Shown: positions 23,982 through 63,923 of the stretch, piece after piece
Layout: each line of letters starts with the position of its first letter
Position numbering within the stretch: the first letter of the stretch is position 1
Assembly (NCBI RefSeq): GCF_000429125.1
Contig: NZ_KE386849.1
Location: 1 to 64,000, forward strand
DNA from: Aequorivita capsosiphonis DSM 23843
GTDB taxonomy: Bacteria > Bacteroidota > Bacteroidia > Flavobacteriales > Flavobacteriaceae
DNA: 64,000 nucleotides
Direction of reading: 5' to 3'
Translations under genes and position numbers: made by a program
The notes under the pieces: generated by a model
The model's input: only the letters and a program-made list of their open reading frames with translations
Databases searched by the model: none
Told to the model about the DNA's origin: nothing

Positions 23982-24356
23982 GTTATGAGAGTTTTAAATA
24001 AGATTAAAATGATATTTAGAATACAAATTTCGGAAAAAAATTAAAAAAAGAACCGAAATCAAGAATAAATCTATGTTTTTATGTTTTCATAGAAACAAGC
24101 AAGGTTTATCATCTTTTCATTAATATTTCCCCGATACTGCTTATGGAAACCCTATGCCGTTTACATTTTACTTCAATAATCTCAAAATTCATAAACGCAA
24201 TAAATTCTGTAACTTATTAATTATCAATACTAAACACTTGCTGTCAGAAAACAAGATTTCTACTGTTTTTATTATGGCAAGATAGATTTATGAAAGTCTG
24301 TTTTGTGATGAATTATTTTATTTAATTTTATCATTTTCAATCTTTACAAACGTACT
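23982..24356. other. Gene-free AT-rich gap
   Basis: No frame, RNA gene or convincing repeat is visible. The stretch presumably holds the divergent promoters of the DUF1573 and UPF0158 genes, but no full TTG-N19-TAnnTTTG match was found. Confidence 0.5.
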
Positions 24357-24779
24357 ATGAAAACCCAAAATAATATAATAAAGGAAATAGCTGACAGTCT
24401 ATTGTGCGGTATGATCTGTTTTTATGAGAAAGCCACAAATAGTTTTATCGAATACCCAAAAGAGGTAGAAGACTACCTAATGTTCGATGAGGAAAATCCA
24501 TGGCAGGAAGTAATTGATAAGGTTGAGGATAATGTGGATGATTATCTTTTGATAGACCCAATGCCCTCTTCCGAGGCTTTTAAACTTATGGAGCAATTTG
24601 CCAGAGAAATAGATTCTCTAGGTTTTTCGGCCAAACTTCTGGATGCACTTGACAAACGCAAGCCATTCCAGAATTTCAATCATTTAATAGAAAATGATTT
24701 TGATAACCGACAACTCTGGTTCGATTTCAGGCTTGAAAAAAATATGGAATGGGTAAAAAGACAAATTGAATTTGGGTAG
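24357..24779 (+). CDS. UPF0158 family protein
   Basis: 140 residues, acidic and cytosolic. The N-terminal half IIKEIADSLLCGMICFYEKA and EYPKEVEDYLMFDEENPWQ, and the C-terminal RKPFQNFNHLIEND..RQLWFDFR, fit the UPF0158 family, which has no assigned function. It ends 68 bases before mnmE on the same strand and could be co-transcribed with it. Confidence 0.8.
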   Translation: MKTQNNIIKEIADSLLCGMICFYEKATNSFIEYPKEVEDYLMFDEENPWQEVIDKVEDNVDDYLLIDPMPSSEAFKLMEQFAREIDSLGFSAKLLDALDKRKPFQNFNHLIENDFDNRQLWFDFRLEKNMEWVKRQIEFG

Positions 24780-24847
24780 CATATTTGCCATCCCCGACTT
24801 TGATAAAATTTAAAACTTTGTCAAACTAAATCTTACCTTTGCTCCCA

Positions 24848-26236
24848 ATGATACACACAGATACTATAGTTGCCATGGCAACTCCAGCAGGTGCTGGCGC
24901 AATCGCAGTTTTAAGGCTTTCGGGGCCAGAGGCTATTTCTATTGCTTCCTCTATATTCACCTCAACTTCAGGAAAGGATCTAGCTAAACAAAAAACCCAT
25001 ACGGTACATTTGGGTAATATTAAAGACGGCGAAAAGATAATAGATGAAGTACTCCTATCTATTTTCAAAAACCCAAACTCTTATACAGGTGAAGATGTAG
25101 TTGAAATCTCTTGCCACGGCAGTAGTTACATCCAACAGGAAATTATACAATTATGTCTTCGGAAAGGCTGTAGAATGGCTCAGGCTGGCGAGTTTACCTT
25201 AAGGACATTTCTCCACGGAAAAATTGATTTGAGTCAAGCGGAAGCCGTGGCAGACCTAATAGCGAGTGATAGTGCTGCAAGCCATCAACTGGCAATACAA
25301 CAAATGCGCGGTGGATTTTCTTCAGAAATAAAAAATCTTCGCGAAGAACTTTTAAACTTTGCGTCATTAATAGAACTGGAACTGGACTTTGCTGAAGAAG
25401 ATGTAGAGTTTGCAAATAGAGATGATTTCCAGAAACTCATCTCAAAAATAACAACTGTTCTTAAACGCCTGATAGATTCTTTCGCAACAGGTAATGTATT
25501 GAAAAATGGAATTCCAGTTGCCATTGTTGGGGAACCCAATGTTGGAAAATCTACCTTACTCAATGCATTGTTAAATGAAGATCGCGCTATAGTAAGCGAC
25601 ATCGCTGGTACAACAAGAGACTCCATTGAAGATGAAATAATAATCGGGGGCATCGGTTTCCGGTTTATAGATACCGCTGGTATTCGCGAAACGGTGGACG
25701 TTATTGAAGGGTTAGGAATAAAGAAAACATTTGAAAAAATTGAAGCTGCCCAGGTAGTGATCTATCTTTTTGATGCGGGAAAATTTAAAGTTCAAGGTTC
25801 AAAATTCAAAGTTGAGATTGAAACTATTAAAAACAAGTATCCACTTAAAAATTTAGTTATAGTTGCTAACAAGGTTGACAAACTTTCATTAGAAGAAATC
25901 AATAAGCTACAAGCAGCAATCGGCCATCTCCATCTGCTTTCTGCCAAAACGGGACAAGGCGTGGAAGAACTTCAAAATAAATTACTGGATTTTGTAAACA
26001 CGGGCGCCCTTCGAAATAATGAAACCATTGTTACTAACAGTCGGCATTATGACGCCATGTTAAAAGCTTTGGAAGAAATCATCAAAGTACAGGAAGGAAT
26101 TGATAGTGGTTTAAGTGGAGATCTATTGGCAATAGATATTCGACAGGCACTTTACTATTTTGGTGAGATTACGGGTGAAATTTCTAATGATGAATTGCTT
26201 GGGAATATATTTGCTAATTTTTGTATTGGGAAGTAA
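24848..26236 (+). CDS. mnmE: tRNA modification GTPase MnmE
   Basis: 462 residues from the ATG at 24848. A TTG three codons earlier is possible, but the conserved N-terminus is DTIVAMATPAGAGAIAVLR. The N-terminal folate-binding domain is followed by a helical domain with the G domain inserted: G1 GEPNVGKST (about 228-236), G3 DTAGI and G4 NKVD. The C-terminus is the essential FCIGK, where the cysteine is conserved. With MnmG it makes the 5-carboxymethylaminomethyl modification at wobble U34. Odd feature: KFKVQGSKFKVE in the G domain matches a repeat-derived insertion (see findings). The gene is otherwise normal. Confidence 0.97.
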   Translation: MIHTDTIVAMATPAGAGAIAVLRLSGPEAISIASSIFTSTSGKDLAKQKTHTVHLGNIKDGEKIIDEVLLSIFKNPNSYTGEDVVEISCHGSSYIQQEIIQLCLRKGCRMAQAGEFTLRTFLHGKIDLSQAEAVADLIASDSAASHQLAIQQMRGGFSSEIKNLREELLNFASLIELELDFAEEDVEFANRDDFQKLISKITTVLKRLIDSFATGNVLKNGIPVAIVGEPNVGKSTLLNALLNEDRAIVSDIAGTTRDSIEDEIIIGGIGFRFIDTAGIRETVDVIEGLGIKKTFEKIEAAQVVIYLFDAGKFKVQGSKFKVEIETIKNKYPLKNLVIVANKVDKLSLEEINKLQAAIGHLHLLSAKTGQGVEELQNKLLDFVNTGALRNNETIVTNSRHYDAMLKALEEIIKVQEGIDSGLSGDLLAIDIRQALYYFGEITGEISNDELLGNIFANFCIGK

Positions 26237-52604: not shown

Positions 52605-53129
52605 ATGAAAACACAGAAAAAACTAATAACACTTTTTTCCGCAATTGGAATTTTAATGATGGTACTTGGCTTATATGCTTTCACGACTAATCCCATTGCA
52701 GACGAAAGCTACTCGCCACAACCGCCTTGGGAAAACCTTAAAGTGCTTCCTAAAGATATTTCGAAGGATAGTCTCGACCACCTTATGAAAGGCTACACGC
52801 TTGCCCTTGGGGTAAAGTGCAATCATTGTCATGCGCCCAGCAAAACCGATCCAACCAAATTGGATTTTCCGAGCGATGCCAAAATTGAAAAGGAAATTGC
52901 ACGTGGAATGATAACCATGACGGATGAGATTAATGAGAAAAGCTTTAAACCTTACTTCCCTAAACCAATTCCTCATCAGGTATACGTTGTAAACTGTGTA
53001 ATGTGTCACCGAGGAAACGTCAATCCAGAAAAGTATTTGTCACAAATGGGAGATATGTACAAAACCTATGACCCCAATAGAGATAACAGAAAGGAGAAGA
53101 TCTTGGAAAGTGGTGAATGGAAGGAATAA
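52605..53129 (+). CDS. Di-haem c-type cytochrome (reaction-centre cytochrome subunit-like)
   Basis: 174 residues. One N-terminal membrane segment (about 8-26) is an uncleaved anchor or signal peptide. Two haem c motifs are present: C72-N-H-C-H76 and C131-V-M-C-H135. The spacing and the segments PWENLKVLPKDISKDSLDHL and NPEKYLSQMG resemble the cytochrome subunit fold of photosynthetic reaction centres, but with only two haems. Non-phototrophic Bacteroidetes carry such proteins; they probably transfer electrons in the periplasm. No partner is encoded next to it. Confidence 0.87.
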   Translation: MKTQKKLITLFSAIGILMMVLGLYAFTTNPIADESYSPQPPWENLKVLPKDISKDSLDHLMKGYTLALGVKCNHCHAPSKTDPTKLDFPSDAKIEKEIARGMITMTDEINEKSFKPYFPKPIPHQVYVVNCVMCHRGNVNPEKYLSQMGDMYKTYDPNRDNRKEKILESGEWKE

Positions 53130-53359: not shown

Positions 53360-54628
53360 TCATTCTTTACCCGCTTTTCCTAGACTAGACCAAATATCAG
53401 CCAACATTTCCCAAGGTATTTGTCCACGTTTTTTGCTTTCAGAAGTCATTTCCTTCATAATATTTTCCAGAATTGGGCCGTCTGAAATTCCCATGGCAGC
53501 ACCAATTGTTTTAACGACCATTTGGGCCAACTCTACAGGTTCTTGCGTTGCCCAAGATTTTCCATAGGCCTCCCAATCTGTACTCGCAGTGGGGGTTTTT
53601 ACTTCTTGATGAGTTTCTATTGCAGTGCTTTGTAAACTAACTTTTTCAGCAGGTATTATTTCACTGTAGGTTATAAGTATTTCCCCTTCTTCAAAATCAG
53701 CAAAAGATTGGCTCAATGAACGGTTGTCCCATTTCAGCTGCATTTTACCGTCTGCTGGATGATAAATGGAAGTATAGACAGTTCCAAATCCCTCATTGTA
53801 CTTTCTGTTGAATAATGGACTTTTTGAAAATGCATTGATTATAGTTTTTGGCTCTTGCTCCTTTTCCGAAATCATTTTATTTATAAATGCCTCTCGCTCC
53901 AAAGTTTTTGAGAACTGGGCATGTTGGGGCCAATCAACCTTTCCTTGATGATTCGTGGAAAGCGGCATTTCCGTCACTATCGGCTTTCGGTCTGGAGCCA
54001 ACTGTACTAATTTATGGTTGCCCGTTTTGTCTAAAACCATTACATTATATGCCATATGGGATGGAATCTGTTGCAAAACTTCCGTCGCTTCTTCCACATT
54101 TGAACAAAATTCAAGCACATAGCGGATTATAAAAGGAATTCCAAACCCCTCACCCACTACTTTCCTTCCTCCAAAAGTCAACGAAACCACTAAGCCATCG
54201 GAATTCATTCCATCTACAAGACCCCAAAGACAGTCGTTGATTCCTATAACCCGCTTTCCGTTCCAAGAAGTATTTAACAAAGTACCTTCCGAAAGGTGGG
54301 GATGATAGTCATAATTCCGCACAAGCATTGGAGGATTTTGTGTTATAACTTGGGAACATCCGCTGATGTATGCCGGGGGCTGAAATCCAGTCAAAAACCG
54401 TTCAGCGATGGGATCATTACCACCCAATTTGCACAGTTTTTCATAAGTAGGTACAAATTTTGGCATATATTCCTGAAGCTTCGCTTTGGCTACGGACAAG
54501 GGCGGATTATTCACCGCTCCTTTGCTTTGAAACCAAGCTTTGTAAGCAGGCCAATGTTTTTGAAATAATTGTTGCCATTTTTCTCCGGGCTTTGCCTCAG
54601 AGATTGAATGAAAATTTAATTGTAGCAT
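53360..54628 (-). CDS. C45 family N-terminal-nucleophile acyltransferase/hydrolase
   Basis: 422 residues. The likely autocatalytic nucleophile is C91 in YISGCSQV, followed by the oxyanion-type RNYDYHP at residues 104-110, as in the C45 (isopenicillin-N acyltransferase-like) family of Ntn hydrolases. WGLVDGMNSDGLVVSLTFGG is also typical. If processed, residues 1-90 would be the small fragment. The last 80 residues (about 340-422) are not part of the core. C45-like enzymes form or hydrolyse amide bonds. It is last in the co-directional set that starts at gabT; participation in that pathway is inferred. Confidence 0.82.
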   Translation of the reverse strand: MLQLNFHSISEAKPGEKWQQLFQKHWPAYKAWFQSKGAVNNPPLSVAKAKLQEYMPKFVPTYEKLCKLGGNDPIAERFLTGFQPPAYISGCSQVITQNPPMLVRNYDYHPHLSEGTLLNTSWNGKRVIGINDCLWGLVDGMNSDGLVVSLTFGGRKVVGEGFGIPFIIRYVLEFCSNVEEATEVLQQIPSHMAYNVMVLDKTGNHKLVQLAPDRKPIVTEMPLSTNHQGKVDWPQHAQFSKTLEREAFINKMISEKEQEPKTIINAFSKSPLFNRKYNEGFGTVYTSIYHPADGKMQLKWDNRSLSQSFADFEEGEILITYSEIIPAEKVSLQSTAIETHQEVKTPTASTDWEAYGKSWATQEPVELAQMVVKTIGAAMGISDGPILENIMKEMTSESKKRGQIPWEMLADIWSSLGKAGKE

Positions 54629-54837
54629 TTTTTTTGTTTTTTTAAATAAGTATCTAGCAATGTAAAGTCTTAGTTCTTAGACTTTTTAAAAAGTAAAAAA
54701 TGGTTGGTTATTTAGTTTAACACTTCAGGTAACTCTCAGAAAAAACTAGTTGCTATTCAGCATTACCAATTCTCGGTACAAGAGCTATCGAAGACTTTTG
54801 AAATGAAATTAGAATTTTATTTATATATAGACATCGC

Positions 54838-56193
54838 TTATTTCACATAAACCGTCTTGCTATTCACAAACTCCATCATTCCGTTTTTTGCGAGTTCGCG
54901 ACCGTAACCCGAACGCTTTTCACCTCCAAATGGAAGCCTGGGATCGCTCTTGACCAGTTCGTTTATAAAATAGGCGCCATCACTCACTTCACCAGCATAT
55001 TCGAGGGCTTTTTCAATATTGGTGGTGCAAACCGTGACCCCAAGTCCATAGCGTGATTGTTCTGAGAGTGCGAATGCCTCTTCAATAGTCTTCACTTTTA
55101 TCATCGCTGCCAAAGGTCCAAATGTTTCCTCGTCAAATGCAGGCATTCCAGGTTTTACATTTCCTAAAATAGTGGGTTCGTGATAGGCTCCTTGCTGTTT
55201 TCCGCCCAACAGAAGTTCTGCGCCTATTTCAAGAGATTTTCTTACCTGATCTTGAAGCTGGTCTGCCAAATCTTTTCGTGCCATTGGTCCAACTTGCGTG
55301 CTTTCTTCCAAAGGATCTCCAGATTTTAAATTTTTGACGGCCGTTGTAAATTTTGAAACAAATTCTTCATAGATACCTTCCATCAAAATAAAGCGTTTAG
55401 CGGCAATACAACTTTGCCCGCAATTTAGCATTCTAGCGGTAAGGGCGGTTGCAACTGCTTGGTCTATATTGGCGTCGTTCCAAACGATGAAGGCGTTGTT
55501 GCCTCCCAGTTCCAATAGCGTTTTTTTGATATATTTTCCTGATATCTGAGCTACTGCCGCACCTGCCCTTTCACTTCCCGTAAGTGTTACAGCTTTTACG
55601 GCATCGTGTGCAATAATAATTTCGGTTTTATCGTGATGGACAATTAGATTTTGAAAAACTCCATCCGGAAATCCCGCCCTTAAAAAAACTTCCTCAATTT
55701 GTTTTGCACATCCAAAAACGTTGGGGGCGTGTTTTAAAAGTCCCACGTTTCCTGCCATAAGCGTAGGTGCTGCAAAACGGAATACTTGCCAGAAAGGAAA
55801 GTTCCAAGGCATAATGGCGAGAACAGAACCAATTGGATCGTGGCGCACAAAGCTTTTTTGGGCGTCTGTTTCAATGATTTCATCTGATAGAAATTCAGCT
55901 GCTTTTTCAGCAAAATACTCGCAGACCCAAGCGCATTTATGCACCTCAGCACGGGATTCGGCAATGGGTTTCCCCATTTCCAAGCTTATCATTTTAGCGT
56001 ATTCTTTTACGTCTTCCCGTAAAATTTCTCCCGCTTTAGTCATTAATTTAGCGCGATCTTTCAACGAAACTTTTCGCCAGGATTTAAATGCGGTTTCCGA
56101 TTTTTCTAATTTTTGTGAAATTGCCTCTTCCGTTTCAGGATTATAGGTTTCTACAATTTGATCATTGTAAGGGTTTATACTTTTAAATTCCAT
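54838..56193 (-). CDS. NAD(P)-dependent succinate-semialdehyde dehydrogenase-type aldehyde dehydrogenase
   Basis: 451 residues from the ATG at 56193. Numbering from that ATG, the catalytic Cys is C262 in CGQSCIAAKRF, the general base is E228 in LLELGGNN and the oxyanion Asn is N131 in IMPWNFPFWQ. The form lacking the first 30 or so residues of GabD and starting FKSINPYNDQIVETY belongs to the Sad/YneI branch, which oxidises succinate semialdehyde and related C4-C5 semialdehydes. It lies in a set with gabT and a decarboxylase, which fits GABA-type catabolism. Separated from the upstream ATP-grasp gene by 354 bases of palindromes. Confidence 0.9.
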   Translation of the reverse strand: MEFKSINPYNDQIVETYNPETEEAISQKLEKSETAFKSWRKVSLKDRAKLMTKAGEILREDVKEYAKMISLEMGKPIAESRAEVHKCAWVCEYFAEKAAEFLSDEIIETDAQKSFVRHDPIGSVLAIMPWNFPFWQVFRFAAPTLMAGNVGLLKHAPNVFGCAKQIEEVFLRAGFPDGVFQNLIVHHDKTEIIIAHDAVKAVTLTGSERAGAAVAQISGKYIKKTLLELGGNNAFIVWNDANIDQAVATALTARMLNCGQSCIAAKRFILMEGIYEEFVSKFTTAVKNLKSGDPLEESTQVGPMARKDLADQLQDQVRKSLEIGAELLLGGKQQGAYHEPTILGNVKPGMPAFDEETFGPLAAMIKVKTIEEAFALSEQSRYGLGVTVCTTNIEKALEYAGEVSDGAYFINELVKSDPRLPFGGEKRSGYGRELAKNGMMEFVNSKTVYVK

Positions 56194-56251
56194 CAAAAAT
56201 TTATTTATTTTGGCTTTAATTTAAACTAGTATTATAGTTTCAATATCCAAG

Positions 56252-56502
56252 TTTCGACATTTTGTCGCCCTGCCGGCAGGCAAGGCCTTAGACCCGATAA
56301 TTATCGGGAGGGGGCAGAAACAAAAGGTCGAAAATTCAATCATTTTTACCCTGGCCCTAAAGGGAATAATTGAATTTTCTTAGTTCGGACCAACTTGAAA
56401 CCTTTTCAATATCAATTTAAATCGAAATATCAACGTGGAGCTTAACTAGAGCCTTTATATTCTATTTAAATCATACCTCAAAGGTTTTAAAAACCTTCGA
56501 GG
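56252..56502. repeat. Nested palindromes between the ALDH and ATP-grasp genes
   Basis: TTTCGAC (56252) and GTCGAAA (56327) enclose two perfect palindromes, CCTGCCGGCAGG (56269-56280) and CCCGATAATTATCGGG (56293-56308). Then GAAAATTCAAT (56330-56340) pairs with ATTGAATTTTC (56369-56379), enclosing CCCT..AGGG. Finally CCTCAAAGGTTTT pairs with AAAACCTTCGAGG (56476-56502). The last could terminate the ATP-grasp transcript. The gap holds no gene. Confidence 0.75.
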
Positions 56503-56547
56503 TTTAGCATGATTGTTTTTTCGGAACGTTCCGGATTGAGGCTTTAA

Positions 56548-58185
56548 TTATTTGGCAAGACTACCAATAATTTCAGGTAGTTCGGCTTTATCTTCCAAAA
56601 CGGTAGATGCATAATTTCCCTTAATTGCATTTATCCAAGTTTTAGCGCGTTGGGTAAGTTGGAAATTATCGGTCATCATCCTACCTCGTGTCACCAAAAT
56701 ACCCAGATCTGCACCTTCATACAGATAATGATCTTTGTTTGCTATCCGAAGAAAAAATGCCTCGCTTTCACTTTCCACTGCACGACGGTGGGTGTCCATA
56801 CGGTTGAACTGGATATGGCCATTGTCAAAAATTCGCCAAATGCCCGACTGTGGAGCTTCCGTTACTTTTTCAATGGTTTTTTTGGTGTGCTTAATGACTA
56901 ATTGGCTCCAACTATCAGTATTTTCTTGCTTAGCCCATCTGTTGTTGATGGCGTCAACGTTAAGGTCGTAATCCACCTCCATCCATTCCAAAATATGGAA
57001 AAGGTGAAGTGGGGCGTCAGCCAAGGCAAAAACGGCATGATTGGTAATGGAGCTGGCACCCGTAACCCTAGGATTTAATTCGCCGAGATAGATCTCACCA
57101 TTGTCTTCATCTATTAAAAAGTCGAGTTCAAAATAGCCTTTGTAACCTTCTTTTCGTAATTGGTCTCCAAAGAGACGAGTGTATTCCCGTGCTTTTTTCC
57201 GAAGGATTGGATTAAAAGAATCGGGGTAAATCTCGTTGCCACACCAACCACCTTTATAAGGTGTAAGTTCCTTAAACCCTACTAATTCAGTCATTAGTGG
57301 AGCAACTATGGTTCCGTGGCGTGTAACACAAGCTTCAATTGCAGAACCGCGACAGTTAATGCGCTTCATTATTTTCACTTCTTTTTCAGCTTCAATTTCT
57401 TCAGCATGCTCTTTGTATTCTTCCTCATTTGAAATAAAGAAAGTAGTATGTCCAGAATCGCCAAAAGGAGTTTGAATTACCAAATCATGACCTAGTTTCT
57501 TAGAAACTTTTTCAAGGTGTTCGTAATTGTTCACTTTTGACAATACATAGGGAACACAAGCAACACCAGCTTTTTCTGCAAGACGATTGGTGTTTACCTT
57601 GTTATCCATTGCGGTTCGCATTTTGGCCGAAGGGAACATAACTTCAAGTCCCAGTTTTTTGGCAAGATTTTCGGTTTTTTCCGTAAACATTAGAAACATT
57701 ACCTTTCCAGCATTTTTGCCTTTTTTTCTAGACTTTATATATTCTTGAACTTCGGGATGCTGCAATAGATAATTGTTGATATCCTCTATGCTCTCAAACT
57801 CGTCGTGCGGAATTTCTTCTTTAGGCGAAAAGACGTTGGGATGTAACCCATCAAAACATTCGATGTAGGTGATGAATTTAAATCCTTTTATCCATTCATC
57901 GGCACCCAAAAGGTTAAAGTTGGTGGCACTTATAAAATAAATAGGGGTTTCATTTTTATAAAAGAAACGCCGAATATCTGGAATTCCGTTGAGCACTGGT
58001 TTTGGTTTATCCGCTTTTTTCTTAGCGACCGTTTTTTTCGCCTTCGCTTTCGTAGTGGGTTTCACCTTTTTTCCAATCGATTTTTCTTCAGCTACAGCCT
58101 TGTTCTTATCCATAACTCCCGACTTCGATTTTGTTTTCACATTCGATTTGGACTCAGATTTGGTTTTTGGTTTATCAGTGCTCAT
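56548..58185 (-). CDS. ATP-grasp ligase with lysine-rich N-terminal tail
   Basis: 545 residues. Residues 1-65 are a low-complexity Lys/Ser/Ala tail (KPKTKSESKSNVKTKSKS, KPTTKAKAKKTVAKKKADK), like histone H1 tails. The rest is a biotin-carboxylase-type ATP-grasp fold: RLAEKAGVACVPYV, the ATP-binding KLGHDLVIQTPFGDSGHTTF and the Mg-binding end YKGYFELDFLID..IYLGELNPRVTG. It lacks a biotin-carboxyl-carrier partner nearby, so carboxylation is unlikely; ATP-dependent amide or peptide ligation is more plausible. The gene follows the decarboxylase after 27 bases and must be co-transcribed with it. Confidence 0.85.
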   Translation of the reverse strand: MSTDKPKTKSESKSNVKTKSKSGVMDKNKAVAEEKSIGKKVKPTTKAKAKKTVAKKKADKPKPVLNGIPDIRRFFYKNETPIYFISATNFNLLGADEWIKGFKFITYIECFDGLHPNVFSPKEEIPHDEFESIEDINNYLLQHPEVQEYIKSRKKGKNAGKVMFLMFTEKTENLAKKLGLEVMFPSAKMRTAMDNKVNTNRLAEKAGVACVPYVLSKVNNYEHLEKVSKKLGHDLVIQTPFGDSGHTTFFISNEEEYKEHAEEIEAEKEVKIMKRINCRGSAIEACVTRHGTIVAPLMTELVGFKELTPYKGGWCGNEIYPDSFNPILRKKAREYTRLFGDQLRKEGYKGYFELDFLIDEDNGEIYLGELNPRVTGASSITNHAVFALADAPLHLFHILEWMEVDYDLNVDAINNRWAKQENTDSWSQLVIKHTKKTIEKVTEAPQSGIWRIFDNGHIQFNRMDTHRRAVESESEAFFLRIANKDHYLYEGADLGILVTRGRMMTDNFQLTQRAKTWINAIKGNYASTVLEDKAELPEIIGSLAK

Positions 58186-58212
58186 ACTAATTGTGTTTTA
58201 AATTAAATTAAT

Positions 58213-60963
58213 CTATTTTTTCTTTTTTGAATTTCCCATCCCCATTGCGCCTAGGGCGGTTGCGGTTTTTTGACGGTTCAATACGCTGTCTCGGAAAATA
58301 CGCAAACCAAGATCTGCCCTATAACCGTGAATTTCCTTTACGTCCAGTGCCAACATAAAGTTAATAATATCTTCACTTACAACTTGTCCTGGAACTAAAA
58401 CAGGAAAGCCCGGTGGATACGGAATTACAAAGGAGGAAGCAACTAGGTCCCGATCATTGGTCATTGCTTTTTTGCAATCGCCAAGGGAGATATACTCGTA
58501 ATTGTCCTCATTATATGCCATAAAATATGCGTCGCGGATACTTCCACCCGGAACAGTGGGAACCGCCCGGAAGGAACTATGGAAGTAACTGAAATCAGGC
58601 AAGGGCGGGACTTCATTTATCAAAGAATGAATTCGTTGTTGCGAAATTTCGCTTTCCCGGCTATTTAAGGAGCGGAATTCCTCGTCTAACTGCTCCGAGA
58701 TTTTTAACAGGGCATTGGTTAAATATGCAACACTCCCTCGTGTAGTACCAATATTGGTCATAAACAAAACGGTATTTCTAGAGGTTTTATTTATTTGTAT
58801 ATTAAACTGGTCCATCAAATATTTGTTTTTGAAGGTATCGCCATCAACGCCTGTTCTACCTATAAACAAGGTTATTTTTGTGGGATCCAACATAAACTCG
58901 TCTTTTTCCCAAGCGGTTTCCATTCTATTCCATCCAGTGCTGGGGTCATAATATTCTACCAGCCCAGTTTCCCTGTATTGGTCCGGGATAAAATCCTTTA
59001 CCGTCAGCACATCAAAATATTTGTTCAACTGAGGATTGTTGGTTATTTTGGCACGAAGCACCATGGCCATTTCGATGCTTTTTTCTACCATTTCAAATCC
59101 TTCAAACTCCACTTGCCTTCTCCCTACATCCAGTGAAGCTAGCATTTGGTAATTTGGAGAAGTGGACGTATGCGTCATATATGCTTCCAAAAAGGTATTT
59201 TCAGATTTTTTTCTGAAATCCTCATCCCATATATGAATCATGGAACCTTGACGGAAACTACTCAAGGTTTTATGTGTACTTTGTGTGGCATAAACCCTGA
59301 TACATACTTTTTCAGGATCTGGTAAAGTGGGCTCCTCTCCAGCGGAAAGATTCTTTATATGATTTTTATATTCCTTTTTATAAGCCTCACTTCGGTATTT
59401 GTCAAAAAGTTTCTTGGCAGTGAACATGGCCGTTCGTTGCTTATATATATAGGTGAAACCTGCAAAGGCAAACCAAGCTTCGTCCCAAAGAAAAATCATA
59501 TCCGGTTTTATGGCTAAAATTTCCTGCATAACTTTTTCAACGTTATAGACCAAGCCGTCAAAAGTACAATTGGTAAGGAGGAGCATTTTCACTTTGTCCA
59601 ACCTCCCGGCCTCACGTAGTTGCAACATTTTTTCTTTAATACTATTTAAAGGTACAGCGCCGTACATAGAATACTCCTGAATAGGATACGAATCAAGATA
59701 TACCGGATAGGCACCTGACAGAACCATGCCATAGTGATGGCTCTTATGGCAGTCACGGTCAATAAGCACTAAATCACCGGGTTCTATTATTGCCTGGAGT
59801 ACAATTTTATTGGCAGTGGAAGTTCCGTTGGTAACGAAAAAAGTACGTTGGGCACCATAAGTTTCGGCAGCCATTTCCTGCGCCTTTTTAAGCGGTCCTG
59901 TGGGTTGTAGTAGAGAATCCAAGCCACCAGTGGTGGAGGATGTTTCGGCCAAAAACATATTGCGGCCGTAAAATTCTCCAAAGTCTTTTATCCATCGGGA
60001 CTTAAAAACTGAATTTCCCCGTGAGATGGGCATCGCGTGAAATATTCCCGTGGGTTTTTGACTATATTCCTTCAAGGCACTAAAAAACGGAGTGTCAAAT
60101 CGTTCCCGAACTCCCCGAATAATACCGAGATGAAGTTCCTGCAAATCCTCTTTACGATAATAAATACGGCTGAATTGACGTAAGGTACTGTCCTTTAAAT
60201 CTGTGAGGGAAGTGTCAGTAACATAATAAGTGTCCAACTCTGGCCGAAATTGTTTTACAAGTTTGCCCAAAAGTGGTCCAAGTTCGTATTCCGGTGTTCC
60301 TTCCAGATCAATTTTAAGAACGTTCTGAATATAAGGCTTTAATAAATCTGAGATATTTTCTGAAGCATAAGGCGGGGCATAACGAATTACCGCAGCCTGC
60401 AAGTTTGGGTTAAAAAGCAAGGCAATCAAAGAATCCTGAAATGAACGCTGCACCAAAAAATCGTAAGTAAACTGTTCGTTCGGTTCGCGTAATTCGTCCA
60501 GTTTTTCGTGAAGTGCAACCTCTTCAATGGCCGAACGGTCTTCCACAAATAGCACTTCAAAATAATTTTTCTTTTGGGCGGAAGAAAGCTCTCGAATATC
60601 TTCGGGTCTAGCCTGATCATTTTCTTCAGTATGGGTAGAAGTGGGATGGTTCAAGTATTCATCGCTTACCAATTGCCTGTTTATTTCTGTAATATTGTGC
60701 GCCAAAGACATATATTCTTCTTTATGGAGCGCTTGGCAGAGTTTTTCCAGTCTGGTTTTTCCGGGATAGACAAAATACAATTCAATGGTCTTTATATCCT
60801 TCAAAAAACCCTTTAAGGTATCCAAAGAATCCTGCTCGCATTTAGAACCTTTTTTAGAATTTGCAAGAACAGTACTAATCCTTTTCAGATCTCGCCAAAT
60901 AGAAATGCGTAATTGGCCGATACTGTAATAAGGGGAACTTATATTCTTTTTTTTGTTGGTCAT
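58213..60963 (-). CDS. Orn/Lys/Arg decarboxylase-fold PLP enzyme with long N-terminal extension
   Basis: 916 residues. The PLP domain starts near residue 300: FVTNGTSTANKIVLQA (376-391), DRDCHKSHHYGM (402-413), the cofactor Asp in FLWDEAWFAF (D494) and the Schiff-base lysine K565 in YATQSTHKTLSSF. A C-terminal domain with VLVPGQVVSEDIINFMLAL follows. These are the marks of the bacterial inducible arginine/lysine/ornithine decarboxylase fold. About 300 residues precede the core, against about 130 in AdiA or CadA, and they show no receiver-like motif. It may decarboxylate a basic amino acid; which one is not readable. The VOC gene ends 3 bases upstream. Confidence 0.85.
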   Translation of the reverse strand: MTNKKKNISSPYYSIGQLRISIWRDLKRISTVLANSKKGSKCEQDSLDTLKGFLKDIKTIELYFVYPGKTRLEKLCQALHKEEYMSLAHNITEINRQLVSDEYLNHPTSTHTEENDQARPEDIRELSSAQKKNYFEVLFVEDRSAIEEVALHEKLDELREPNEQFTYDFLVQRSFQDSLIALLFNPNLQAAVIRYAPPYASENISDLLKPYIQNVLKIDLEGTPEYELGPLLGKLVKQFRPELDTYYVTDTSLTDLKDSTLRQFSRIYYRKEDLQELHLGIIRGVRERFDTPFFSALKEYSQKPTGIFHAMPISRGNSVFKSRWIKDFGEFYGRNMFLAETSSTTGGLDSLLQPTGPLKKAQEMAAETYGAQRTFFVTNGTSTANKIVLQAIIEPGDLVLIDRDCHKSHHYGMVLSGAYPVYLDSYPIQEYSMYGAVPLNSIKEKMLQLREAGRLDKVKMLLLTNCTFDGLVYNVEKVMQEILAIKPDMIFLWDEAWFAFAGFTYIYKQRTAMFTAKKLFDKYRSEAYKKEYKNHIKNLSAGEEPTLPDPEKVCIRVYATQSTHKTLSSFRQGSMIHIWDEDFRKKSENTFLEAYMTHTSTSPNYQMLASLDVGRRQVEFEGFEMVEKSIEMAMVLRAKITNNPQLNKYFDVLTVKDFIPDQYRETGLVEYYDPSTGWNRMETAWEKDEFMLDPTKITLFIGRTGVDGDTFKNKYLMDQFNIQINKTSRNTVLFMTNIGTTRGSVAYLTNALLKISEQLDEEFRSLNSRESEISQQRIHSLINEVPPLPDFSYFHSSFRAVPTVPGGSIRDAYFMAYNEDNYEYISLGDCKKAMTNDRDLVASSFVIPYPPGFPVLVPGQVVSEDIINFMLALDVKEIHGYRADLGLRIFRDSVLNRQKTATALGAMGMGNSKKKK

Positions 60964-60966
60964 TAT

Positions 60967-61374
60967 TTAGTTTTTGGAATTAATAGCAAGCTTGTTGCCT
61001 TCGCTATCTATAAAAAGGGCAAAATATCCAGCCTCATCACTTATTTTTGTTTTTTGCATTATAATACGTCCTCCTAAATCTTCCACTTTATCGAGTATGG
61101 GTTGAAGATTTTTGCCCCCATTCAAATAAATTAAAGAGCCAGTTTCGCTGGGTACACAACCCGATCCCTTTACCAAGGCTCCGCCGATGCCAGTGGTTAC
61201 TGGAAAAACTGCCATCTCGTAATCGTTCATCTCCGTGGTTTCCATCTTGATATTATAAATATGGTTGTAAAAATCGGTTGCCCGTTCCATATTTAAAACG
61301 GGGATTTCAAACCAAGTGATAAAATCCTTCATCTTGTTGTTGGTTTGTTTCGGTTTTTTGGACATTATTCCCAT
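60967..61374 (-). CDS. VOC (glyoxalase/bleomycin-resistance) superfamily protein
   Basis: 135 residues; internal starts at 61365 or 61332 (MKDFITWFEIPV) are possible, the last matching the usual domain start. The paired beta-alpha-beta-beta-beta units are visible: FITWFEIPVLNMERATDFYN and LIYLNGG.NLQPILDKVEDL, with DSEGNKLAINSKN at the end. The N-terminal His ligand is replaced (ITWFE) but a terminal acidic residue is in place. Members bind metals and act as lyases, isomerases or binding proteins. Only 3 bases separate it from the decarboxylase gene. Confidence 0.87.
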   Translation of the reverse strand: MGIMSKKPKQTNNKMKDFITWFEIPVLNMERATDFYNHIYNIKMETTEMNDYEMAVFPVTTGIGGALVKGSGCVPSETGSLIYLNGGKNLQPILDKVEDLGGRIIMQKTKISDEAGYFALFIDSEGNKLAINSKN

Positions 61375-61552
61375 AATTATTTATTTAATAGTTGCTGAAA
61401 TATGTTTTCTTTCAATATCGTTGTTTGAAAATTCAACACTTAGTTTACTCATTGTCTTTAAGCTGTTCCATCCGAAACATGTTTGGCTTACTGGCTAATA
61501 AACTAACTCAACCTTCAAGTTGATTTTCACATTTAAAATATCTATAAGCTCC

Positions 61553-62491
61553 TTATTCTTCATAGCCATCGCCTTTATAACTCATCACACTGACGGGGAG
61601 TTCAATTTCGCTCTCCATTTTCTTGAGTTGCTCTAGTTTGTCAACTTTTGTAGGTTTAATAAGAGGCCCCAAGGCCTCGAGATATGGATGTTTTGCTCCA
61701 GGTGCGTATATACTGAAATCGCCAAGATTGTCACGAAAGCTTTTGAGGGGTTGACCCAAACGCATTACACCAAGTTCACGGCTGCGTTTAACTCTGGCCA
61801 TATCTATTTCAATGGGGAATATTTCCTCCGTGGCTCCGGCTTTGTACATTATTCTTCCATCGGGCCCGCAAACAGTAGAGCGGCCAATACCTCCAGTTTC
61901 GAGACCGTTAATATCAAAAAAGAAACATTGGTTTACTGCAGCCATGGTTTGCGCGATGGAATGTTCTATTTCACGATCCATAGTACCTGTCATCGTTGGG
62001 TGAAGAATTACTTCAGCCCCCATAACAGCCAGGGTTCGGACGGTTTCAGGAAACCACATGTCATAACAAATAGACACTCCAAAAATACCCACATTCGGAA
62101 TTTCAAACGTGCAAAATTCATTGCCCGGAGTTATTCCAACTTCAAAAGGATAAAAAGGGAACATTTTTCGGTAACGAGTAACTATTTCTCCCTGTGGATT
62201 AATGACCGTGGCGGTGTTGTAAATTTTATCACCATCCTTTTCAAAAATAGAACCTGGCAAAAGCCAAATACCATATTTTTTAGCCATAGCCTGCATTTCT
62301 GTTTCAAATTCGCCAGGAATCTCCTGAGCGTAATAGGTTAATGGGCCATAAGCACAAAGTTCACTAAATAGCACCAACTGCACAGATGGATAAAGGTGCA
62401 TAGTGATATCCAGTTTCAGTTTCATCATTTTCAGATTACTCTGGGTGGCAGAAACTCGCATTTGAATTCCCGCAATGGTAAATGGTTTCAT
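61553..62491 (-). CDS. Carbon-nitrogen hydrolase (nitrilase superfamily amidase)
   Basis: 312 residues. The catalytic triad is E44 in LFSELCAYG, K109 in RYRKMFPF and C142 in VSICYDMWFPE. The protein starts FTIAGIQMRVSATQSN and has the C-terminal extension typical of amidase branches. It should hydrolyse a linear amide, carbamoyl or nitrile substrate in the cytosol. Because it lies with gabT, a decarboxylase and an ATP-grasp ligase, a candidate substrate is an acylated or carbamoylated amine such as N-carbamoylputrescine; that is inference. Confidence 0.88.
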   Translation of the reverse strand: MKPFTIAGIQMRVSATQSNLKMMKLKLDITMHLYPSVQLVLFSELCAYGPLTYYAQEIPGEFETEMQAMAKKYGIWLLPGSIFEKDGDKIYNTATVINPQGEIVTRYRKMFPFYPFEVGITPGNEFCTFEIPNVGIFGVSICYDMWFPETVRTLAVMGAEVILHPTMTGTMDREIEHSIAQTMAAVNQCFFFDINGLETGGIGRSTVCGPDGRIMYKAGATEEIFPIEIDMARVKRSRELGVMRLGQPLKSFRDNLGDFSIYAPGAKHPYLEALGPLIKPTKVDKLEQLKKMESEIELPVSVMSYKGDGYEE

Positions 62492-62606
62492 ATATTTATT
62501 TATTTTTTTAGAGAAAGACTATTTCCTGCGCGCTAAGCAGGCTGACGACATATCCCGATAATTCTTATTTTTTTAAATTGTATTATGTAATTTAAATGAA
62601 GCGTTT

Positions 62607-63923
62607 TTATTCCTCTCGGGTTACCTTTTCAATAACCTCTTCAAGAATATCAAGGCCTTTTTCTAATTGTTCATTAGTTATAACCAATGGACAAAGTACT
62701 CGTATAATATTTTTAGATGTTCCTGCATTTATGATTATCAGACCACGGTCGGCACAATTACCAACAATTTGACCACAAAGCTTTCCGTCTGGCTTTAAGG
62801 GGTCACCATCTTTTACAAATTCCATCGCCATCATGGCTCCCATGCCACGTACATCACCGATTTGTGGATATTTAGCTTGCATTTTTTTAAAACGTTCCTC
62901 AATAATATTTCCTACCTCAATACCGCGCTGGTTTAGGTTTTCATCTTTCATCATTTGAATAGTTGCAAGTGCTGCTGCACAACAAACAGGGTTTCCAATA
63001 TAGGTGCCACCAATGCTACTGGGGGCTGCAGCATCCATTATTTCGGCTCTTCCAAGAATTGCTGCGATCGGCATTCCTGAACCCAATGATTTGGCGTAGG
63101 TGCTTATATCAGGAGTTACGTTGTAGTTCTGCCAACTGGCCCAATTTCCGGTACGGCCAAAACCACTCTGAATCTCGTCTGCAATAAGCATAATTCCGTA
63201 GGTATCGCAGAATTTACGAAGGCCTTCAAAATATTTTTGTGGCACTGGATTAAAACCACCTTCCCCTTGAATAGGTTCCAAAATTACTGCCGCCAAGCTG
63301 TTGGGATCCACCAAATTTTTTGCACTTTCGTAGAGACGTTTTAATTCCATATCAACAAATTGATTCATTTCCAAAGAACCGTGATACCGATAAAAATTAG
63401 GAAATGGAAGTCTATAAACTTCAGGAGCATAGGGTCCTGAATTCATTTTATAGTCAATTTTACTGGTAAGAGTCATGGCCATCAGGGTACGGCCGTGGAA
63501 AGCATCGGTAAAGCAAAGTACGCCTGGCCTTTTAGTAGCCTGACGAGCTATTTTTACTGCATTCTCAACTGCCTCGGCACCTGTACTAACGAGCATCGCC
63601 TTCGTGTGCCCGCCATGAGGAAGTAACTCCACCAGTTTCTCGCAAAGTTCAAGATAAGGTTCATAAGTAACCACATTAAAGCTGGTGTGGATATATTTTG
63701 CGGCCTGCTCTTGAATGGCCTTTACTACTGGCTCGGGACAATGGCCAGCATTTACAACCCCAATTCCACCGGCAAAGTCAATCAATTCGCGACCATCTTC
63801 GTCTATGATAATGGCTCCTTTTGCGGCTCGTGCGGTGGCAGTGTTAAAAACGCCCACGCCATTGGCTACAACATTTTTTCTTCTTTCCAGAAGCTTCTCA
63901 GATTTTGTCAATTGTTTTAACAT
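62607..63923 (-). CDS. gabT: 4-aminobutyrate aminotransferase (class III)
   Basis: 438 residues, similar along the whole length to E. coli GabT: RKNVVANGVGVFNTATARAA, LIDFAGGIGVVNAGHCPEPV, VSTGAEAVENAVKIARQATK, ILEPIQGEGGF, cofactor Asp D249 in LIADEIQSGFGRTG and PLP lysine K278 in TYAKSLGSGMP. It moves the omega-amino group of GABA, or a related omega-amino acid, to 2-oxoglutarate and yields succinate semialdehyde. It is the first gene of the co-directional set; the SSADH-type gene lies further on. The 63924-64000 stretch upstream is AT-rich, with no full consensus promoter seen. Confidence 0.9.
   Translation of the reverse strand: MLKQLTKSEKLLERRKNVVANGVGVFNTATARAAKGAIIIDEDGRELIDFAGGIGVVNAGHCPEPVVKAIQEQAAKYIHTSFNVVTYEPYLELCEKLVELLPHGGHTKAMLVSTGAEAVENAVKIARQATKRPGVLCFTDAFHGRTLMAMTLTSKIDYKMNSGPYAPEVYRLPFPNFYRYHGSLEMNQFVDMELKRLYESAKNLVDPNSLAAVILEPIQGEGGFNPVPQKYFEGLRKFCDTYGIMLIADEIQSGFGRTGNWASWQNYNVTPDISTYAKSLGSGMPIAAILGRAEIMDAAAPSSIGGTYIGNPVCCAAALATIQMMKDENLNQRGIEVGNIIEERFKKMQAKYPQIGDVRGMGAMMAMEFVKDGDPLKPDGKLCGQIVGNCADRGLIIINAGTSKNIIRVLCPLVITNEQLEKGLDILEEVIEKVTREE

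What the first reader, a model, noticed from the sequence alone, without database searches (positions are those of the whole stretch)
53360..63923. Seven-gene set for conversion of a basic amino acid or polyamine toward succinate, with unexplained ligase and hydrolases
Order on the minus strand: GABA aminotransferase, nitrilase-type amidase, VOC protein, large Orn/Lys/Arg-decarboxylase-fold enzyme, ATP-grasp ligase, SSADH-type dehydrogenase, C45 Ntn hydrolase. The middle three genes are separated by 3 and 27 bases. GabT plus SSADH is a known GABA-to-succinate route; a decarboxylase could supply a diamine. The ATP-grasp enzyme could attach a protecting amide (as glutamylation does in the Puu pathway), and the nitrilase or C45 enzyme could release it. 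No amine oxidase and no GlnA-like PuuA or class-I amidotransferase PuuD is present, so this is not the known Puu route. It may be a new polyamine or arginine/lysine catabolic or signalling system.
Basis: inference. Interest (0 to 1): 0.8.

Follow-up and report, generated by a model that had tools for sequence, protein, structure and literature searches.

The report
Conserved operon linking decarboxylase to GABA
A set of seven neighbouring genes, kept together in bacteria of several phyla, probably makes the small molecule GABA through an amide-linked intermediate and burns it to succinate, using a decarboxylase that lacks two marks of its lysine- and ornithine-cutting relatives; no substrate has been tested.

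Summary
All seven genes lie at the stated coordinates. Linkage is strong: of 80 named loci with the ATP-grasp gene (best 80 of 188), 63 reach far enough upstream, and all 63 have GabT, nitrilase and decarboxylase. In 20 chosen genomes, ATP-grasp, decarboxylase, nitrilase and a true GabT are together in 9 and missing in 11. C45 is optional (7 of 9).

The 'Orn/Lys/Arg decarboxylase' label is probably wrong for substrate: Glu526 of lysine decarboxylase and a PGE glutamate are Asn and Gln in 86 of 86 long-form relatives. The closest solved relative, Rv2531c, has no assigned activity.

Best reading (inferred): ATP-grasp joins glutamate to an amine, the decarboxylase turns the conjugate into a 4-aminobutyryl amide, amidases release GABA, and GabT plus dehydrogenase make succinate. 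A Puu-like route for conjugated ornithine or lysine is the main rival. Three paper searches listed no description of the set.

The parts
62607..63923 (-). GabT: class-III aminotransferase, 4-aminobutyrate transaminase type, 438 aa
   Evidence: Aminotran_3 7e-120; PRK06918 521 bits; 41% to PuuE; next best in its own genome 31%
61553..62491 (-). NIT: nitrilase-superfamily amidase, 312 aa; E44, K109, E117, C142 invariant in 33 aligned sequences
   Evidence: CN_hydrolase; alignment A3; best solved match 'nitrilase homolog 2' 85.9 bits
60967..61374 (-). VOC-like small protein, 135 aa; present in 57 of 63 testable loci
   Evidence: PF00903 16.4 bits, under cut-off
58213..60963 (-). Long-form Orn/Lys/Arg-decarboxylase-fold PLP enzyme, 916 aa; PLP lysine K565; N725 and Q860 where E. 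coli lysine and ornithine enzymes have glutamates
   Evidence: OKR_DC_1 4e-82; 787 bits to Rv2531c structures 9n0o/9n0n; residue comparison
56548..58185 (-). ATP-grasp ligase of the PRK06524/NF005096 family, 545 aa; residues 1-54 a lysine-rich low-confidence tail
54838..56196 (-). Aldehyde dehydrogenase, closest to succinic-semialdehyde type, 452 aa (TTG start as listed)
   Evidence: Aldedh 438 bits; PRK09406 519 bits, PRK13968 461 bits, both under cut-off
53360..54628 (-). C45 Ntn hydrolase, 422 aa; conserved Gly-Cys91 proposed as self-cleavage site
   Evidence: C45_proenzyme 165.8 bits; C91 invariant in 20 aligned sequences; optional in the unit

Best explanation
An accessory GABA-forming and GABA-burning operon. 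Shown: the genes form a conserved unit, and in the 9 operon genomes examined it carries the only transaminase of true GabT identity. Inferred, in order: (1) the ATP-grasp ligase spends ATP to join the gamma-carboxyl of glutamate to an amine X; (2) the long-form PLP decarboxylase removes the alpha-carboxyl of that glutamate, turning gamma-glutamyl-X into 4-aminobutyryl-X; (3) the nitrilase-type amidase, with C45 as a second or alternative amidase, cuts it to GABA and X; (4) GabT converts GABA to succinic semialdehyde and the aldehyde dehydrogenase makes succinate. X is unknown. The logic copies the butirosin side-chain route, where BtrK decarboxylates a glutamyl group held on a carrier.
For: Unit; joint presence of ATP-grasp, OKR, NIT and GabT in 9 and absence in 11 genomes. 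GABA end: best named models are GABA transaminase and SSADH; an ALDH of 27-30% identity holds the same place in five loci (four scanned), so an aldehyde step is kept. Substrate not free basic: Glu526 to Asn and PGE to PGQ in 86 of 86, with Arg gained at 315 and 571. Glutamate context: glutamate dehydrogenase within the stretch of 3 of 6 rhizobial loci, FMN glutamate synthase in Roseobacter, DctA/GltP-type carrier in Cupriavidus oxalaticus, aspT beside 3 of 5 long-form relatives examined away from the ligase. Amidase context: a rhizobial locus adds hydrolases closest to 6-aminohexanoate-dimer and cyclic-dimer hydrolases, enzymes for omega-amino-acid amides. Precedent: BtrK, seen in passages of PMC7857480.
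Against: No substrate was tested. If X is released unchanged, the cycle spends ATP for no obvious gain. In 4 of 13 plasmid loci examined the ligase and C45 have no OKR beside them; in Shinella and Roseateles XES5 (and by spacing Sinorhizobium RAC02) they sit with NIT in an arginine-to-GABA operon, which fits free GABA as the shared metabolite better than gamma-glutamyl-X, although XES5 carries an OKR gene elsewhere on the same plasmid. PuuR-like regulators in both Rhodobacterales loci and arginase near that XES5 OKR point to polyamine or arginine. AdiA also lacks Glu526, so arginine is not excluded by that position. The aspT relatives are a long-branch side clade, and AspT is known to pair with a different, 4-decarboxylating enzyme (passages of PMC9508256). 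The roles of positions 526, 663, 315 and 571 rest on recall or inference.
Confidence: 0.33

Rival explanations
1. Puu-like route for a conjugated basic amino acid: ATP-grasp acylates the side-chain amine of ornithine or lysine, the decarboxylase acts on the conjugate (as FigC does on N-citrylornithine), GabT and ALDH oxidise the free amine end to an acid, and an amidase releases GABA or 5-aminovalerate.
For: Uses every enzyme; explains a pocket that binds an amide instead of an amine; PuuR-like regulators, about 135 bits and 35-36% to PuuR, in 2 of 2 Rhodobacterales ligase loci examined; arginine and arginase contexts; FigC precedent in passages of PMC7857480.
Against: Long-form relatives seen without an adjacent ligase (aspT-linked) and Rv2531c share the same letters, so the letters are hard to explain by the conjugate alone. 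GabT and ALDH score best as GABA transaminase and SSADH; the aminobutyraldehyde dehydrogenase model PRK13473 gets 277 bits against 519 for SSADH. PuuR bits lie under the cut-off of 211.
Confidence: 0.25
2. GABA-amide make-and-break cycle: the decarboxylase makes free GABA from glutamate, ATP-grasp couples GABA to an amine (as carnosine synthase does), and C45 and NIT hydrolyse the amide, for storage or osmotic use; GabT and ALDH dispose of GABA.
For: In 2 annotated (3 by spacing) of the 4 plasmid loci where OKR is not beside ATP-grasp and C45, an arginine-to-GABA route stands in the operon. Carnosine synthase makes homocarnosine from GABA and is an ATP-grasp protein (passages and a reference title in PMC7367687). 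C45 member Tan cuts beta-alanyl amides (recalled).
Against: Making and breaking an amide in one unit looks futile; NIT is present with OKR in 63 of 63 testable named loci while C45 is optional. The fourth locus without OKR, Cupriavidus necator, shows no arginine route that I recognised.
Confidence: 0.18
3. Arginine carboxamide route: the PLP enzyme is an O2-using decarboxylase that makes 4-guanidinobutyramide, NIT hydrolyses it, an arginase-family enzyme elsewhere makes GABA.
For: NIT relatives lie near a gene annotated 5-guanidino-2-oxopentanoate decarboxylase in 3 loci; carboxamide-forming PLP monooxygenase-decarboxylases exist (recalled; search listing only).
Against: Leaves ATP-grasp and C45 without a role; arginase-family genes are in 20 of 20 genomes and do not track the operon.
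Confidence: 0.1
4. Several unrelated steps bundled by chance of history, with ATP-grasp and C45 acting on something outside the GABA route.
For: C45 also occurs without the rest (Sulfitobacter plasmid; genome G010).
Against: Order and membership are kept across phyla.
Confidence: 0.1

Closest known systems
Puu putrescine pathway of E. coli (PuuA, B, C, D, E)
   Same: ATP-dependent conjugation, amidase release, GABA transaminase, aldehyde dehydrogenase, ending in succinate (pathway from passages of PMC10135574)
   Different: Ligase is ATP-grasp, not PuuA-type; no PuuB or PuuD relative; a decarboxylase is part of the unit
Butirosin side-chain route BtrI/BtrJ/BtrK
   Same: Ligase plus PLP decarboxylase that turns a held glutamyl group into a 4-aminobutyryl group (BtrK from passages of PMC7857480; BtrJ as ATP-grasp is recalled)
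   Different: BtrK is alanine-racemase fold and the glutamate is held on a carrier protein; no carrier gene seen among the seven
GABA shunt with glutamate decarboxylase GadB
   Same: GabT and SSADH-type dehydrogenase
   Different: Decarboxylase is OKR fold, not PF00282; ligase and amidases added
Rv2531c of Mycobacterium tuberculosis
   Same: Closest solved structure, nearly full-length match of 787 bits, same Asn and Gln letters in the printed alignments
   Different: Activity unassigned (passage of PMC12910592); its neighbourhood was not examined
CATCH-N arginine network of Sinorhizobium meliloti
   Same: Arginine to GABA to succinate enzymes, symbiotic setting
   Different: The passages seen name AspC, IlvB1, OdcA, OdcB, GabD and GabT enzymes; 'biotin carboxylase' and 'C45' occur 0 times in the main text. 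Whether the strain studied there holds the cluster was not checked

Membership tests
Basic amino acid decarboxylases (Lys/Orn/Arg, OKR type) | OKR_DC_1 fold with PLP lysine in S-x-H-K | tested here: met
   276.6 bits; K565 in 86 of 86
Basic amino acid decarboxylases (Lys/Orn/Arg, OKR type) | Acidic positions Glu526 (lysine and ornithine enzymes) and the PGE glutamate | tested here: not met
   Asn and Gln in 86 of 86; at 526 the E. coli set has E in CadA, LdcC and SpeF and T in AdiA, and at PGE it has E in 4 of 4; functional role of the positions recalled
Basic amino acid decarboxylases (Lys/Orn/Arg, OKR type) | Decarboxylates free Lys, Orn or Arg | not testable with these tools
   needs enzyme assay
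Puu pathway | PuuA, PuuB and PuuD relatives in the cluster | tested here: not met
   blastp of six E. coli Puu proteins against window ORFs of 100 aa or more: only PuuC and PuuE match at E 1e-3
GABA catabolism (GabT plus SSADH) | GABA transaminase and SSADH family membership | tested here: inconclusive
   Best named models are GABA transaminase (521 of 676 bits) and SSADH (519 of 730 bits), both under the equivalog cut-off
PRK06524 ATP-grasp family | Score over NCBIfam cut-off | tested here: met
   801.2 against 684 bits
Biotin carboxylase (as the family is named) | Catalytic Glu (E296 in AccC, recalled) four residues after the active-site Arg; Biotin_carb_C domain | tested here: not met
   Printed alignment puts A377 at that place; no Biotin_carb_C match at E 0.001
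C45 proenzymes | Family score and Cys nucleophile after a cleavage site | tested here: met
   165.8 against 85 bits; C91 invariant; self-cleavage itself not tested
N-carbamoylputrescine amidase (AguB) | NCBIfam equivalog cut-off | tested here: not met
   81.8 against 410 bits

The most novel reading that the evidence does not exclude
A new primary-metabolism route from glutamate to GABA in which the glutamate is decarboxylated while held as an amide, by a decarboxylase subfamily that looks like a lysine/ornithine enzyme but has switched to acidic or amide substrates. It would also suggest a substrate class for unassigned relatives, and a natural setting for enzymes that resemble nylon-oligomer hydrolases.
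Probability: 0.25. Interest if true: 0.85.

Novelty: new variant of a known kind. Interest (0 to 1): 0.6.

Why it matters
If right, a group of proteins annotated as Orn/Lys/Arg or 'amino acid' decarboxylases is mislabelled, including one solved structure without an assigned activity. An undescribed GABA pathway would be spread across several phyla, and parts of it also sit beside nitrogenase genes on two Rhizobium leguminosarum plasmids, where arginine, GABA and succinate exchange is under study. The predictions are simple to test with purified enzymes.

Tried and rejected

Weak points: the 80 loci are the best 80 of 188, so they lean to close relatives, and they are not independent. Of 32 plasmid records with the ATP-grasp gene I looked at 13 loci in 12 records, chosen by me for spread and annotation. 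Over the family cut-off, the ATP-grasp gene is in only 4 of 296 phylum genomes, own genome included. Genome G014 holds a 46-residue piece of the ATP-grasp gene at a contig end and was left out of the 9-against-11 table; G005 and G016 of the 11 have weak ATP-grasp matches (4e-4) to a 1154-aa frame, taken as another enzyme. Two contigs were fetched twice under different ids (L024/L033, L027/L034); the counts use only the 80 named loci.
Full report
What is there. Family scans agree with six of the seven names; the VOC label is under its Pfam cut-off (16.4 against 20.6 bits). The window comes from a genome of 4.04 Mb in 26 contigs; the best named match of its ATP-grasp protein is Aequorivita todarodis, 92%, a Flavobacteriaceae member.

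Is it a unit? One pattern scan of the genome-contig collection with the ATP-grasp protein gave 188 stretches that encode a relative, of which the best 80 were kept. I translated the flanks and labelled ORFs by blastp and clustering and counted on those 80. Where at least 3 kb lie upstream, the decarboxylase precedes the ligase on the same strand in 72 of 72, median gap 16 bases (range -35 to 224). Where at least 6.5 kb lie upstream, GabT, nitrilase and decarboxylase are all there in 63 of 63, and the VOC-like gene in 57 of 63. Where at least 4.5 kb lie downstream, the aldehyde dehydrogenase is there in 58 of 66 and C45 in 43 of 66. Of 56 loci with both flanks, 34 show the order GabT, NIT, VOC, OKR, ATP-grasp, C45, ALDH; the other 22 lack one to three of the genes or have C45 twice. 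The window has the last two genes swapped. Record titles of the 80 name Flavobacteria, Algoriphagus, Saprospiraceae, Ignavibacteria, a Balneolaceae bin, a Calditrichaeota bin and an Acidobacteria bin, among others.

Presence and absence. Within the genus the unit is patchy: strong ATP-grasp matches in 5 of the 24 genus members searched. It is rare in the phylum: 4 of 296 genomes over the cut-off, own genome included. In 20 genomes, 9 with and 11 without the ATP-grasp gene (chosen), the decarboxylase, the nitrilase and a GabT of 71% identity or more are in 9 of 9 and 0 of 11. The next best transaminases are at 37% or less. C45 is in 7 of 9 (in G001 away from the operon, in G208 with one stop in frame) and in 1 of 11, so it is optional. 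Arginase-family and GadB-family genes do not track it. In these 9 genomes the unit holds the only transaminase of true GabT identity.

Beyond Bacteroidota. tblastn on plasmid records found the ATP-grasp gene in 32 records. I examined 13 loci in 12 of them. C45 or its remnants follow the ligase in 13 of 13 (broken in L118 and L123), OKR is adjacent in 9 of 13 (in pieces in L118 and L123), and NIT is within about 9 kb in 7 of 13. Three settings stand out. (a) Cupriavidus oxalaticus, Roseobacter ponti and Pseudorhodobacter: NIT-OKR-ligase-C45, with, respectively, a DctA/GltP-type carrier; GabT and an FMN glutamate synthase; a TRAP permease. (b) Six Rhizobium and Sinorhizobium plasmid loci: OKR-ligase-C45 without NIT; most of them continue with a peptide-type ABC transporter, amidase, RpiR regulator and serine hydrolase; two lie next to nifHDK. 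In S. meliloti RU11/001 the amidase and the serine hydrolase match 6-aminohexanoate-cyclic-dimer hydrolase (260.6 bits) and 6-aminohexanoate-dimer hydrolase (212.5 bits) best among solved structures. (c) Shinella and Roseateles XES5: NIT, ligase and C45 inside an arginine-to-GABA gene set (agmatinase family, 5-guanidino-2-oxopentanoate decarboxylase, ALDH, D-amino acid dehydrogenase, racemase, RidA, as annotated) without OKR beside them; Sinorhizobium RAC02 has the same spacing but no annotation; XES5 carries an OKR gene elsewhere on that plasmid. The 13th, Cupriavidus necator, has peptide-transporter genes, NIT, ligase and C45 and no OKR. NIT relatives (E up to 1e-50) are in 8 plasmid records, 7 of which also carry the ligase.

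The decarboxylase. It is an OKR-fold PLP enzyme with the catalytic residues kept (K565, H564, D494, H406), closest to Rv2531c structures (787 bits), whose activity is not assigned (passage of PMC12910592). Aligned with E. coli CadA, LdcC, AdiA and SpeF, position CadA 526 is Glu in three and Thr in AdiA, but Asn in 86 of 86 long-form rows. The PGE glutamate (CadA 663) is Glu in four of four but Gln in 86 of 86. Arg is gained at 315 and 571 in 86 of 86 (the same scan lists other changed positions whose place in the fold I cannot judge). The 86 rows are the window, 73 of the 80 named loci, 7 proteobacterial operon copies, 2 others and 3 aspT-linked copies. That CadA Glu526 binds the lysine side-chain amine is recalled, not tested; the paper search for it found nothing relevant. 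Of five relatives examined away from the ligase, three lie beside aspartate-alanine antiporters, one of them also with aspartate 4-decarboxylase and HdeA; the other two lie near an ectB-type transaminase and in the XES5 region with arginase about 7 kb downstream. The aspT-linked copies form a long-branch side clade among proteobacterial copies. I take this as evidence against free basic substrates and, more weakly, for acidic or amide ones. A passage of PMC8503589 (section 11 also read) says that a considerable number of SpeA-type homologues are unlikely to be basic amino acid decarboxylases.

The ends. GabT and ALDH score best as GABA transaminase and succinic-semialdehyde dehydrogenase, both below equivalog cut-offs. 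In five loci the ALDH place is held by an ALDH of 27-30% identity; the four scanned score best with a lactaldehyde dehydrogenase model, also under its cut-off. The aldehyde step is thus kept although the enzyme changes.

Mechanism. What unites the settings is GABA and amide bonds: a decarboxylase or an arginine route that could make the 4-aminobutyryl unit, an amide-forming ligase, one or two amidases, and in the Bacteroidota-type unit GABA oxidation. The linear scheme that uses each enzyme once is Glu + X to gamma-Glu-X (ligase), to 4-aminobutyryl-X (decarboxylase), to GABA + X (NIT, C45), to succinate (GabT, ALDH). BtrK is a precedent for decarboxylating a held glutamyl group (passages of PMC7857480). 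The Puu-like rival, in which a conjugated ornithine or lysine is decarboxylated, is nearly as likely. It gains from PuuR-like regulators (about 135 bits, cut-off 211; 35-36% to PuuR) and from FigC. The make-and-break GABA-amide rival gains from setting (c). I cannot tell these apart by sequence. The VOC-like protein has no role in any scheme.

Novelty. Searches of the paper library for combinations of ATP-grasp, decarboxylase, nitrilase, GABA and gene cluster (2, 0 and 9 papers) listed no title or abstract start that describes this set; of those I looked at passages of two (PMC7367687, PMC10135574). The main text of the CATCH-N paper holds 0 occurrences of 'biotin carboxylase' and 'C45' (passages seen). 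Most subscription papers are not in the library, and the cryoEM paper on Rv2531c was not held.

Noticed in passing
L116:21591-23042 and 24013-25203: Amidase and serine hydrolase on S. meliloti RU11/001 pSymA match nylon-oligomer hydrolases (6-aminohexanoate-cyclic-dimer and -dimer hydrolase) best among solved structures; genes annotated amidase and serine hydrolase also sit in R. leguminosarum copies.
   Followed up: partly
L037:11493-12191, L057:2088-2795, L078:11551-12261, L079:11500-12201, L096:11455-12156, L083:14894-15595, L085:14948-15649: A 233-aa protein family, between ligase and ALDH (five loci) or downstream of ALDH (two), in seven loci with no C45 in the fetched stretch; no Pfam or NCBIfam match for L079 and no Pfam match for L083.
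   Followed up: partly
window 58024-58185: The ATP-grasp protein starts with a lysine-rich tail of about 54 residues, low confidence in the model.
   Followed up: no
L126:680-3267: In E. coli the lysine decarboxylase gene ldcC is also followed by a VOC-domain gene (yaeR), so a VOC neighbour of an OKR enzyme is not unique to this unit.
   Followed up: no
L047:14528-16012 and the gene after ALDH in ten other loci: A pyridine-nucleotide-disulphide oxidoreductase (Pfam scan of L047 only), by look a dihydrolipoyl dehydrogenase, follows the operon in 11 loci; of interest because the GABA route bypasses 2-oxoglutarate dehydrogenase (recalled).
   Followed up: no
L115:15798-17585: A 595-aa protein annotated alanine racemase carries an Ala_racemase_N domain plus an arginase domain.
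   Followed up: no
window 52605-53129: Small c-type cytochrome that matches the photosynthetic reaction-centre cytochrome Pfam family and, over cut-off, the NCBIfam model c_type_nonphoto.
   Followed up: no
G208:C9:5632-6612: The C45 copy of genome G208 has one stop codon inside its frame.
   Followed up: no
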